Source: Hyaloperonospora brassicae (Eukaryota > Oomycota > Peronosporomycetes > Peronosporales > Peronosporaceae). From it: a DNA stretch of 64,000 nt. Shown one piece after another: positions 27,196-35,179 of this stretch. The notes beneath the pieces were generated by a model that was not told where the DNA came from, ran no database searches, and saw only the letters and a program-made list of their open reading frames with translations. Where the stretch lies: the NCBI GenBank assembly GCA_947650285.1, contig CANTFL010000634.1, positions 62,001 to 126,000 on the forward strand. Direction: 5' to 3'. Every line of letters begins with the position of its first letter. Position 1 is the stretch's first letter. A program made the translations under genes and the position numbers.

Positions 27196-27584
27196 TGTAA
27201 CGGGGCTCACCCTTGCGTGAACTTAACGCAAGGGTATCTTACCCCGACAAGCCAACACGAGGCAAACCAGGAAGCTTAGATAAGGTAAAAGTAGAACGGA
27301 TATATTAATATAATTAAGTCTTTAACCACTGTCTCTCTGTTTGACTTAACTTAATTTCACTAATCTAACTGAATGTATGACGACGTCTACTCACCACTCA
27401 TTGGCGCCACTCGCGGCAATTGGTGGAGTTGATATCGTTAAGATATCAACTAATAGGCAGACTCTTTGGTCGACCCATCAATATCACCACTTTGGTGATA
27501 TTGTTTAAAGAATATTTAACTTCATATTCTTTATTGTCACTTTTCTTAAAGTGACAATTACATGTAACGGGCTGCCCCGTTACA
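27196..27584 (-). repeat. 3' LTR of el3, with six hairpins
   Basis: Perfect hairpins: 27,210-218/226-234 (stem 9), 27,428-436/442-450 (stem 9), 27,480-489/493-502 (stem 10), 27,507-515/524-532 (stem 9), 27,533-543/548-558 (stem 11) and 27,562-571/576-585 (stem 10, overlapping the LTR end). Loops are 3-8 nt. The LTR termini are inverted repeats of one another. Confidence 0.92.
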
Positions 27585-27597
27585 TCACCCCCCCTTA
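27585..27597 (-). promoter_or_regulatory. Polypurine tract of el3
   Basis: The minus strand reads AAGGGGGGGTGA immediately before the 3' LTR. Confidence 0.75.
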
Positions 27598-27716
27598 GCT
27601 GATTGTCACCGTGTGACTATCAAAAATTATGGCGGTCACCCGTTGGCGGCATTAAGACAGGAAGCACTTGTTGGGTCAGTTCCGTTCATAACTCAACCTG
27701 ACCTCGCATAGTTAAT

Positions 27717-29342
27717 ATGTTTATGCGAAGTGACTAAAGGCACACAGAGTCTGTGCCTGTGCCAGCTTTTGCGGCAGGCGATTCGTCGTCTGCTGCTCGT
27801 TCTTTGCCTGTAGCAAGAGGTGCTGCAGGTGCACGCGGTATCACACAGCGTGTGCATGATGACCCTGACATTGAGGTCATCTACTCTGGCGAGTCAGACG
27901 TGTCTGACTCGGGCAATGGTCCAGAGGCTTCTCGATCACCGGCGACGTCTTAGTATTCGCCAAGGCCACTGCTGAACGAACGGACTTGTGAGTTCCAACA
28001 CAGTCTGTTCGGCAGTGATGACAAATCTGGTGATGAATATGTTTGCCCATCACCGCAATCAGCTCGTGCTCCTTCGCACGAGCGACTTGACAATGGTGCA
28101 ACCCATCGTCACACTGACAACCGTGGTATCAACAAAGATACCACCGTGAAGCGTGATGAGCTGAAGCCGTGGCGTTTGCCCGAACGGCTCATCAATATCT
28201 TGTCTCACGAGACAAGCCAACACCATCGAATACCCTTATTCGATGCGACTGAGCTTCACGGCTTGACTCCCATCGCGAGCAACTTTCGCGCTGACGAAGA
28301 CTATTATCTCGATATCTTCCTTAGACATCGATGGTACAACGGCAACCAAAATCGTGACAAGGCCTCGCTTTTGGCTGCGTGGAACGCGTTCGTCCAAAAC
28401 GTAAAGAATTTGGACGAGAAGGGTGGCTCCAGAAACTTGAGGCGACACGCCTCAACTTGGAAAAAAGAGACGCCAACCGGTGCCAGGTACCGGTTGCACT
28501 GTTTGTCGATTGAGGCAGGCATTTCTTGCCTCACATGGGGAGACCCTTGTGCGAGTTGTGTTAACAACTCGCAGCGTGCAACTAGGGATGTGTACTCTCT
28601 AAGTTCGCCCTGGGGAAGGGCACATATCTCGGAGGAGATGCGTGACGCGATTGCAAACTTGCAATCCGTCTACAAGCGCTTAGGGCGCGTGTTGACCGAA
28701 GGTCCCGAGGGTTCATCGGGTGGGTCTCGTCATACTGGTGGACGAGACCTTCAACGTCCATCAACAGCTGATAGCGGGGCTCCCGGCTGTTCCAAGAGGG
28801 TGGATACCCCCGCCACTGGACGAGGTAGCTCGTCCTTGATCCTGAATCGTCACGGTGATTCAAGATACGCTCCACTAGAAAGCGTTGACCACCGTGAGAA
28901 TCCACCAAAGGATGTAGTGGAGGAGGAAATACCTCCTCCAGATGATTCGGTTCACCATCTCGACCCTTACGAGATGGATCGCGTAATCGATACATTTCGC
29001 GATGACTTGAAGCATGAGCGCGACCGGCGCTACGCTTTGACCGATTCCGTGCGGAAGAACCGCAAGGATTGCGAGGCTGATCGGGCGCGAGATCGCGCCG
29101 ATTACGCCACAGCGCAGCTTCAGGTCGAGCGGGATGTTTGCTCCCTTTCCGGCGAGCTGGCGACAGCTCGCGGGGAGATATCTCAAATGAGTCTTGAGGT
29201 ATCATATCTGCGCGAAGAGACGGATCATCTGGAGCGCGGACGCAAGAACTTGATGGATGTTCTTAAACGTGTGGGCTATCTTCATCGGAAGAAGAAGGCT
29301 CGTACTGACAGTACGGCCCGATTTGCCCCACGTAAAACGTAG
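27717..29342 (+). pseudogene. Antisense accessory ORF of el3, 541 codons with two stops
   Basis: An ATG at 27,717 opens a frame that meets TAA at 27,735 and TAG at 27,951 and is otherwise open to 29,342. The last 398 codons are uninterrupted. The N-terminal third is Ser/Asp-rich. A globular-looking middle holds KPWRLPERLINILSHE, DYYLDIFLRHRWYNGNQN and CLTWGDPCASC (28,146-28,700). A linker follows, then a long charged coiled coil (28,966-29,300, for example DLKHERDRRYALTDSV, VSYLREETDHLERGRK) and a basic tail HRKKKARTD. It lies opposite pol and overlaps the chromodomain-bearing tail. Function unknown. Caveat: the hairpin tiling makes both strands share words, which may help keep the antisense frame open. 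Confidence 0.6.
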
Positions 29343-29925
29343 GATGCTTGCACATCTTACGTGGCAATTCGAGAGTGTATGCATTGCCCTTGCGATGCAA
29401 CACTCGAAATGGACCAATGTACTTCGGTAGTAGATTACTACTGCCGACACTAGTGACTGCATGTCCAGGTAGGTTTACCGTAGACAGTAGTACTGGTTGG
29501 TTAACTTTAAATGAAAGATCATTTGCTCTTCCATTCTTGTCTGCGTTCCGTTTCTGACGGTCCACCGCATTTGCGATGGCGTCCTGAACGAAACGGACTA
29601 CCGCTTCTCGAGTCAGCAGGAAGTTCTCTGCTGACTCTTTGTTTTGTCTTTCAGTGCGCTTCGTGCGCACTGCTAAGAGATTGCTCTCTTCTTCAGCGAG
29701 GTTGTCTTCATCCTTGCTGGCATAATCGTTGACGATGCTGAATATAACAGCATCGTCATCATCATCCGAGTCAATAATAGCGTCGTTGCTATTATTGAGG
29801 TGATCTTCTTCATCGATGTCGACCTGATCGACATCGGCATCATATGTGACGACGTGTGCGTCGACACGTGATGAGCAAGAGCCAAAACGGTTTTTGCTCG
29901 AGCGAGTCCCTCCCCCCTTATCCAA
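28582..29925 (-). pseudogene. el3 integrase C-terminus and chromodomain tail
   Basis: The first part (29,925-29,263) is an acidic insert, then the GPY/F-type tail YIGPFRVLHRKGNAYTLELP and HPTFYVGQIGPY, ending in TAA at 29,263. The same frame then continues open to 28,582 and contains a chromodomain at 28,714-28,884: QRFLVERILNHRDD, TSYLVQWRGYPPSWNSREP, and LVHQYDETHP. YLV-W-GY is the methyl-lysine reader core; the usual Trp of TWEP is Arg here. The continuity of family-like text across the TAA shows that the tail belonged to pol. Confidence 0.75.
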
Positions 29926-34728: not shown

Positions 34729-34749
34729 CCAACATGTACATGTTGGATG
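34726..34749. promoter_or_regulatory. Hairpin over the gag start codon of el3
   Basis: CATCCAACATG (34,726-34,736) and CATGTTGGATG (34,739-34,749) form an 11-bp stem with a 2-nt loop. On the minus strand the gag ATG is its last three bases. The primer-binding site begins 15 bp away, and a second small hairpin (GTCCTT/AAGGAC) lies between. A structure here could influence translation start or packaging; that is inference. Confidence 0.6.
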
Positions 34750-34764
34750 TTGTGGTCCTTGGAA

Positions 34765-34783
34765 GGACTACAAAGTGCTACCA
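34765..34783 (-). promoter_or_regulatory. Primer-binding site of el3
   Basis: The minus strand reads TGGTAGCACTTTGTAGTCC, two bases inside the 5' LTR. The el4 site (TGGTAGGACTTTGTATTCC) and the el2 site (TGGTAACACTTGTCGTCA) are alike, so these elements probably share a primer tRNA. Confidence 0.7.
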
Positions 34784-34785
34784 GG

Positions 34786-35179
34786 TGTAACGGGGCACAC
34801 CCTTGCGTGAACTTAACGCAAGGGTTTCGGGTGCCCCGACAGACGTACAAGAGGCGAATGAGAAAGCGTAGGATAAGAAAAAAGTAAAAATGTTGTATTA
34901 ATATAATAAAGTATTTTAACTACTGTCTCTCTGTTTAGCCTGACTTAAGCTTTTTAATATAACTGAGTGTATGGAGACGTCTCGTCACCACTCATTGCGC
35001 GCGTCTTGCGGCGATTGATGAGTTGATATCGTCAAGATATCAACCAATAAGCAGACCCTTTGGTCTCTTCAACAATATCACCAATAGTGGTGATATTGGT
35101 GAAGAATATTCAAGATAATAATTTTTATTGACATTATCTCTCAAATGACAATTTCCATTAAACGGGCTGCCCCGTTACA
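34786..35179 (-). repeat. 5' LTR of el3
   Basis: Same termini as the 3' LTR but only about 75-80% identical by eye. The hairpins at the start (CCCTTGCGT/ACGCAAGGG), middle (GTTGATATC/GATATCAAC) and (AATATCACC/GGTGATATT) are kept, while the sequence between them differs. The GAAAT target duplication follows at 35,180-35,184. Confidence 0.9.

What the first reader, a model, noticed from the sequence alone, without database searches (positions are those of the whole stretch)
27196..35179. A retrotransposon tiled with short perfect hairpins from end to end
Seen directly: el3 has a perfect inverted repeat every ~30-50 bp in LTRs, gag, pol and the antisense ORF. Stems of 9 or more with loops 0-10 include 27,533/27,548 (11), 28,224/28,237 (9), 28,550/28,564 (10), 29,610/29,628 (10), 29,730/29,748 (11), 29,771/29,788 (11), 30,315/30,327 (9), 30,377/30,390 (10), 30,656/30,669 (10), 30,798/30,814 (10), 32,558-32,577 (20-bp palindrome), 32,587/32,606 (11), 32,675/32,691 (10), 33,430/33,443 (12), 34,506/34,520 (9). 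I located more than thirty; with equal base use about 0.3 is expected in 8 kb. I did not notice such density in el1 or el5. Some hairpins use synonymous codons (SKMAHLA at 30,315). Others coincide with residues unlike el2, as at FGFPEDA (30,377). Possible causes: selection on RNA or cDNA folding, a template-switch process writing inverted copies, or an adaptation to or trigger of small-RNA pathways. I know of no described element like this, but could not search.
Basis: partly seen in the sequence, partly recalled or inferred. Interest (0 to 1): 0.92.

Follow-up and report, generated by a model that had tools for sequence, protein, structure and literature searches.

The report
Retrotransposons tiled with selected hairpins
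A family of jumping genes in an oomycete carries dozens of short, perfect hairpins over its whole length that selection keeps while the element is active, and related families carry hairpins of other typical sizes, as if each family had its own hairpin code.

Summary
The window copy (27196-35179) holds 53 perfect stems of at least 9 bp with loops of 0-10; shuffles give under one. All 20 other loci fetched hold 42-76; young copies hold most, and this old copy has decayed. Codon-preserving shuffles give 0.42 stems in pol against 41. Folding energy exceeds shuffles by 46-51% on both strands; phages Qbeta and MS2 reach 22-33%, 12 control sets -4 to +6%. In LTRs, mutations after insertion hit stems and other sites alike (p 0.76), but alleles circulating among copies avoid stems (p 1.5e-6): hairpins are kept while the element replicates. 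New: related families use other sizes: el2 5-bp stems, 3-nt loops, pyrimidine:purine closing pairs; two others 7-9 bp, purine:pyrimidine. Folding energy does not explain these rules. I favour recognition of each family's own nucleic acid by its own protein, with generic RNA shielding as main rival; template switching alone is disfavoured. What reads the hairpins is not shown.

The parts
27196..35179 (-). el3: Ty3/Gypsy LTR retrotransposon with chromodomain, old decayed copy of the hairpin-tiled family; target-site duplication ATTTC
   Evidence: LTR ends and flanks; domains; family copies
27209..35102 (.). 53 perfect hairpins (stem 9 or more, loop 0-10), first base at 27209, 27427, 27479, 27506, 27533, 27562, 27890, 28224, 28390, 28550, 28723, 28918, 29610, 29730, 29771, 29814, 30022, 30075, 30116, 30315, 30377, 30656, 30718, 30798, 31096, 31314, 31365, 31774, 32272, 32300, 32404, 32558, 32587, 32675, 32758, 32975, 33095, 33158, 33258, 33430, 33566, 33619, 34078, 34266, 34398, 34427, 34506, 34638, 34726, 34799, 35022, 35073, 35078
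34786..35179 (-). 5' LTR (394 bp)
   Evidence: young copy L012 has 6 stems of 9 or more in this LTR
27196..27584 (-). 3' LTR (389 bp), 80% identical to the 5' LTR
34036..34665 (-). gag fragment (Retrotrans_gag, Ty3_capsid)
32876..33565 (-). protease fragment (RVP_2)
31826..32875 (-). reverse transcriptase fragment (RVT_1, just under its Pfam cut-off)
   Evidence: oomycete homologues
29673..31124 (-). RNase H end and integrase (RT_RNaseH, Integrase_H2C2; rve under its cut-off)
29263..29928 (-). Tf2-1-like SH3 domain, end of integrase
28582..29262 (-). chromodomain fragment (Chromo)
27954..29342 (+). antisense ORF, 462 aa, no Pfam family; homologues in Hyaloperonospora arabidopsidis and Peronospora matthiolae; also open in young copies
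17201..24775 (-). el2: related Gypsy element with 5-bp/3-nt hairpins (115 stems of 5 or more with loops 3-5)
50696..52840 (.). diverged fragment of the el3 group (76-79% identical), hairpins largely decayed (2 stems of 9 or more)

Best explanation
el3 belongs to a clade of oomycete Ty3/Gypsy retrotransposons whose whole sequence (LTRs, gag, pol and the antisense ORF region) is set with short Watson-Crick hairpins. Shown: the hairpins exceed codon-preserving expectation about hundredfold in pol; they are family features, densest in young copies; stems are spared by variants that circulate in the family but not by mutations after insertion; related families carry different hairpins of different typical size with different closing-pair rules that folding energy does not explain. 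My confidence that the hairpins are kept by selection during replication is about 0.85. Inferred: a factor of the element itself, most likely Gag or its nucleocapsid part assembling on the genomic RNA (or another element protein acting on RNA or cDNA), reads these hairpins structurally at many places, so that each family marks its own genome along its length; the size and closing-pair rule is the mark and the sequence of any one hairpin hardly matters. The confidence given is for the whole statement, inferred step included.
For: Excess over codon-preserving shuffles: gag 10 against 0.17 and pol 41 against 0.42 in L012, maximum 3 in 400; also for an el2-family copy (41 against 9.0), L035 (21 against 1.7), L034 (10 against 1.5) and an el3-family copy (27 against 0.6). 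Family feature: 20 of 20 loci with 42-76, ten further 3-kb pieces with 14-24. Selection in the replicating phase: LTR-pair differences private to one element 0.28 per site in stems and 0.30 elsewhere (p 0.76), alleles seen in other elements 0.23 and 0.56 (p 1.5e-6); whole-element circulating variants 6.1% stem, 18.6% loop, 14.1% flank, 8.9% other (p values); fourfold sites stem 13 of 159, flank 32 of 150, p 0.001; replicated in el2, 7.4% stem, 14.3% loop, 12.6% flank, with private variants level at 8-9%. Compensation enriched among circulating variants in both families. Hairpin rules per family: el2 5-bp stem/3-nt loop 50 against 5, 5' closing base pyrimidine 86 of 115; L034 and L035 purine 28 of 31 although most of their hairpins differ; el3 no rule, 41 of 95 pyrimidine; window background 43 of 90. 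Swapping the closing pair would be neutral or better in predicted energy in L034/L035 and nearly neutral in el2 at 37 C. Even density over gag, pol and 3' region, higher in the LTRs of el3.
Against: No reader protein is identified, and no loop motif was seen. Hairpins are strand-symmetric: G-T and A-C mismatches are equally common in young copies (22 and 22 in L012), and both strands fold equally well, which sense-RNA recognition does not require. In the 3-kb set of 28 copies circulating variants in stems (9.4%) are no rarer than at other sites (8.4%), only rarer than in loops and flanks, and the shared/private contrast is not significant (p 0.36). In the full-length set private variants are also somewhat rarer in stems (12.2% against 14.7-20.5%), and fourfold stem sites do not differ from other sites (p 0.19). 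At 18 C the el2 closing-pair rule is mildly favoured by energy (72 against 41). The L034/L035 rule rests on 31 hairpins.
Confidence: 0.4

Rival explanations
1. Generic shielding by folding, as in genome-scale ordered RNA structure and RNA phages: selection keeps sense and antisense RNA folded on themselves so that they do not anneal into long duplexes or present sites to small-RNA silencing; stems stay short enough not to look like long double-stranded RNA.
For: Folding energy 46-51% above shuffles on both strands in L012 and L027, 50.5% above codon-preserving shuffles in pol, more than Qbeta (31 and 33%) and MS2 (30 and 22%). Stem length falls with GC content in L012, as for a stability threshold (Spearman -0.34, p 0.0003). 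An antisense ORF overlaps the end of pol in the young copies and is conserved in downy mildews, so antisense RNA is plausible. Stems hardly exceed 12-14 bp; passages of PMC7642675 report coronavirus duplexes broken up above 14 bp and poorly conserved positions. Loops in gag-pol are A-rich on the sense strand (131 A, 90 T, p 0.007).
Against: It predicts neither a sharp family-specific stem length nor a closing-pair rule that energy does not favour. G-U pairs in predicted folds are halved on both strands (0.054-0.061 against 0.12), more than in Qbeta and MS2, though RNA folding tolerates G-U. The A-rich loops are not seen in el2, whose LTR loops are T-rich. In L035 stem length does not fall with GC (15 stems).
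Confidence: 0.3
2. A mutational process alone: the element's reverse transcriptase switches template at hairpins, writes inverted copies and corrects stems, with stem and loop lengths set by the enzyme of each family.
For: Only Watson-Crick pairs in the excess; family-specific geometry would follow from the enzyme. Template switching can create and maintain hairpins in other genes (abstract of PMC8794818). In 4 of 7 multi-change hairpins all changes lie in one arm.
Against: Most circulating stem variants are uncompensated (79 of 100 in el3, 50 of 67 in el2), where rapid correction predicts nearly all compensated; correction would not lower stem divergence (my reasoning). Loops are not inverted (4 of 301); 11 of 18 differing hairpins differ at one pair. 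In el2 density does not rise in the LTRs compared with coding parts; in el3 it does, 15 against about 8.5 per kb, which fits this rival.
Confidence: 0.1
3. A DNA-level function: hairpins formed by single-stranded cDNA during reverse transcription, or by the DNA copy, protect or guide the cDNA.
For: Strand symmetry and lack of G-U preference; circulating G-T to A-C 27:18 in el3 and 17:11 in el2, pooled p 0.10.
Against: Sense-strand A excess in gag-pol loops of el3 (p 0.007 and 0.014) and L035 (p 0.027). No cDNA data can be had here.
Confidence: 0.15
4. Chance, composition or codon bias, or an assembly artefact.
For: None found.
Against: Dinucleotide and codon-preserving shuffles; 20 of 20 further loci; no stem of 9 or more in 7 of 7 other reverse-transcriptase families of the genome, two of them distant Gypsy-like matches.
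Confidence: 0.01

Closest known systems
Genome-scale ordered RNA structure (GORS) of positive-strand RNA viruses
   Same: Consecutive unbranched stem-loops along the whole genome, coding parts included; short duplexes; positions turn over between relatives (passages of PMC7642675; here).
   Different: An LTR retrotransposon, not an RNA virus; energy difference 46-51% against a whole-genome maximum of 23.4% quoted there for vertebrate RNA viruses (windows and shuffles differ: 350 nt there, 200 nt here); equal on both strands with G-U pairs depleted; family-specific stem length and closing-pair rules.
Leviviricetes genomes (Qbeta, MS2)
   Same: Both strands strongly folded by local hairpins. That this keeps plus and minus strands from annealing is recalled, not looked up.
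   Different: Qbeta has 5 and MS2 0 perfect stems of 9 or more, against 74 in L012; no closing-pair bias (32 of 58).
Oomycete Ty3/Gypsy elements with chromodomain (Chronos, PMC5348765)
   Same: Oomycete host, Gypsy order, chromodomain (abstract and passages; here).
   Different: Chronos is defined by a second, plant-like RNase H, not found in the pieces scanned here. In that paper 'antisense' and 'inverted' do not occur, and the 'secondary structure' passages shown concern proteins.
Dispersed packaging signals of RNA viruses and Gag-RNA contacts of Ty1
   Same: Idea of many structural sites read by a coat protein (listing and start of abstract of PMC7793301; passages of PMC4974528).
   Different: The strongest Ty1 signals described in those passages lie within about 500 nt of the 5' end; here hairpins cover the whole element, and no protein is known.

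Membership tests
Ty3/Gypsy LTR retrotransposon with chromodomain | LTRs with TG...CA ends and 5-bp target duplication | tested here: met
   TGTAAC...GTTACA; el3 and 7 of 17 other full-length copies have exact 5-bp duplications (compared by eye)
Ty3/Gypsy LTR retrotransposon with chromodomain | gag, protease, RT, RNase H, integrase, chromodomain in this order | tested here: met
   Pfam; RVT_1 and rve just under their cut-offs in this decayed copy
Chronos | second, plant/archaeal-type RNase H | tested here: inconclusive
   No such match in the pieces scanned, but window 31125-31825 was not scanned
GORS | Genome-wide folding energy above shuffles | tested here: met
GORS | Positive-strand RNA virus genome | tested here: not met
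   LTR retrotransposon
GORS | Folding shown by structure probing | not testable with these tools
   no RNA data
Template-switch hairpins | Stem variants mostly compensated in single events | tested here: not met
   21 of 100 (el3) and 17 of 67 (el2) circulating stem variants are compensated
Template-switch hairpins | Inverted loops among copies | tested here: not met
   4 of 301 loop pairs, all of 4-nt loops
Packaging-signal array | Binding by the element's own Gag | not testable with these tools
   no binding data can be had here

The most novel reading that the evidence does not exclude
Families of one retrotransposon clade living in the same genome carry distinct structural codes (stem length, loop length, closing pair) written as dozens to over a hundred hairpins along the whole element, read by each family's own protein to tell its genome from that of its relatives: identity carried by structure everywhere, not by a local signal sequence.
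Probability: 0.35. Interest if true: 0.96.

Novelty: new variant of a known kind. Interest (0 to 1): 0.9.

Why it matters
I found no report of an LTR retrotransposon with selected hairpins along its whole length; ten searches of open full text (listings seen) showed none, which does not cover subscription journals. Predicted folding exceeds that of the two RNA phages measured here. It adds a second layer of constraint to gag and pol, gives several natural replicates (families with different rules in one genome), and makes a testable question of why a genome should be structured throughout: recognition of self, or escape from silencing. It also bears on how retroelements of one cell might avoid packaging each other.

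Tried and rejected
Rejected: chance or codon bias and assembly artefact. Slower mutation of stems in the chromosome: rejected for LTRs; the pooled LTR comparison before separating private from circulating alleles had suggested it (stem 2.85%, other 4.92%). Template switching as sole cause: see rivals. Sense-RNA-only folding: not supported by G-T against A-C counts (pooled p 0.10), weakly supported by A-rich loops. My first class comparison defined stems from one copy, which biases towards stem conservation; I redid it with hairpin sites present in at least 3 copies, and the effect shrank.

Dropped rows: of 20 fetched loci, L011, L018 and L022 were left out of the 18-sequence alignment (17 loci plus el3), because one alignment did not span both ends. 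Hairpin sites seen in fewer than 3 copies were left out.

Led nowhere: relatives of the RT in viral contigs and genome contigs (none), so other species could not be tested; loop-inversion search; a paper search on closing pairs (none). In one search the control labelled win1-13300 covers bases 1-6000 only.
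Full report
What it is. The window lies in a 100.6-Mb assembly of 898 contigs. Most named relatives of its reverse transcriptase among the 120 listed are from oomycetes, the closest from Peronospora matthiolae and Pythium oligandrum, so the host is an oomycete, probably near the downy mildews. 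el3 is a Ty3/Gypsy element on the minus strand, with LTRs of 394 and 389 bp, TGTAAC...GTTACA ends, target duplication ATTTC and gag, protease, RT, RNase H, integrase and chromodomain pieces. A 462-aa antisense ORF lies near the 3' LTR; young copies have it too (462 or 540 aa), and it has relatives in downy mildews.

The hairpins. el3 has 53 perfect stems of 9 or more with loops 0-10. Stem lengths do not fall off as in shuffles but stay frequent up to 8-11 bp, and the excess nearly ends at loops above 10. Of the 20 loci fetched, each has 42-76. Copies whose own LTRs are 98.5-100% identical have 70-76; the two oldest (80% and 86%) have 53 and 47. So active elements carry about 75 hairpins, and old copies lose them. 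In L012 they occur at 8.3-9.2 per kb in gag, pol and the 3' region and 15 per kb in the LTRs, and stems of 8 or more with their loops cover 32% of the sequence.

More than chance. Codon-preserving shuffles of gag and pol of L012 give 0.17 and 0.42 against 10 and 41. Stems sit where the protein is less constrained: at L012 stem codons L035 and L038 differ in 62% against 47% elsewhere. So the difference from el2-like proteins at stems (58% against 48%) is not by itself proof that hairpins force residues. The pairing register with least synonymous freedom is the rarest (13 against 33 and 29, p 0.011).

How folded. In 200-nt windows L012 and L027 exceed dinucleotide shuffles by 48.8 and 50.6% on the sense strand and 46.2 and 46.3% on the other; pol exceeds codon-preserving shuffles by 50.5%. 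Twelve control sets, seven other RT families and five window stretches, lie between -3.8 and +6.1%. Qbeta reaches 31 and 33%, MS2 30 and 22%. Passages of PMC7642675 give HCV 7.5-10.7%, SARS-CoV-2 about 15%, and 23.4% as the highest mean for vertebrate RNA viruses, with a local peak above 50%; their windows and shuffles differ from mine. G-U pairs are about half as frequent as in shuffles, on both strands.

Kept by selection. I separated differences between the two LTRs of one element into those private to that element (mutations after insertion) and those whose rarer allele occurs in other elements. Private ones fall on stems and other sites alike (38 on 135 stem sites, 68 on 225 other sites, 18 elements; p 0.76). 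The others avoid stems (31 and 126; p 1.5e-6). In the full-length alignment circulating variants occur at 6.1% of stem sites, 18.6% of loops, 14.1% of flanks and 8.9% elsewhere. The contrast between circulating and private variants is modest there (p 0.018) and not significant in the 3-kb set of 28 copies (p 0.36), where stems hold fewer variants than loops and flanks but not than other sites. I read other sites as partly structured too (inference). Circulating stem variants are compensated in 21 of 100 cases against 5 of 201 private ones.

A wider pattern. Of the RT families of the genome sampled in 3-kb pieces, seven have no stem of 9 or more; L034 and its kin (L034, L037, L044) have 2-4, L035 and its kin (L035, L041, L042) 6-8, and el3-family pieces 14-24. 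L034 and L035 are 68% identical, share some hairpins, one of them through a compensated pair, but most hairpins belong to one of them only. el2, about 54-60% identical to el3 in the longest protein-level matches in pol, looked nearly empty at 9 bp (2 stems) but has 50 stems of 5 bp with 3-nt loops against 5 expected, and little beyond 6 bp. Its hairpins of 5 bp or more show the same signature of selection: circulating variants 7.4% in stems, 14.3% in loops, 12.6% in flanks, with private ones level at 7.9-9.1%.

Family rules. The 5' closing base is a pyrimidine in 86 of 115 el2 hairpins (and 35 of 41 in L060), a purine in 28 of 31 of L034 and L035, and either in el3 (41 of 95 pyrimidine) and in background (43 of 90). 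Swapping the closing pair would on average improve the predicted RNA energy in L034/L035 and leave el2 nearly unchanged at 37 C; at 18 C the el2 rule is mildly favoured. Loops in el3 gag-pol and L035 are A-rich on the sense strand, those of el2 are not. A generic need for folding explains amount, not rule.

Mechanism. Shown: a family-wide, selected array of hairpins with rules per family. Inferred: a reader. Since rules differ between families in one cell and persist in L034 and L035 while the hairpins themselves turn over, I think a protein of the element is the likeliest reader. Gag is my first candidate because the whole length is marked. Shielding from duplex formation and silencing is the main rival and may coexist; the antisense ORF makes it plausible. 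A purely mutational origin fails on stem conservation and uncompensated variants, as far as these counts go.

Noticed in passing
window 1-13319 and 37598-50940: Inverted arms of 13.3 kb, 97.5% identical, flank the el2/el3 region.
   Followed up: no
window 27954-29342 (+): Antisense ORF with relatives in Hyaloperonospora arabidopsidis (named Core-binding (CB) domain-containing by UniRef) and Peronospora matthiolae; no Pfam family.
   Followed up: partly
window 31826-32875 (-): A Pythium oligandrum protein is 77% identical over 85% of the RT fragment, while the Phytophthora proteins listed are about 52-60%: possible horizontal transfer.
   Followed up: no
L034, L035: Small excess of stems of 5-6 bp with a loop of exactly 14 (L035: 5 and 6 against 2 and 1; L034: 6 against 2 at 5 bp).
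   Followed up: no
window 17201-24775 LTRs: Loops of el2 LTR hairpins are T-rich (1 A to 14 T and 1 A to 15 T).
   Followed up: no
P0094: A protein named as Nitrospira MAG is 58% identical to the oomycete RT: probably contamination of that assembly; the scan of genome contigs found no relative.
   Followed up: partly
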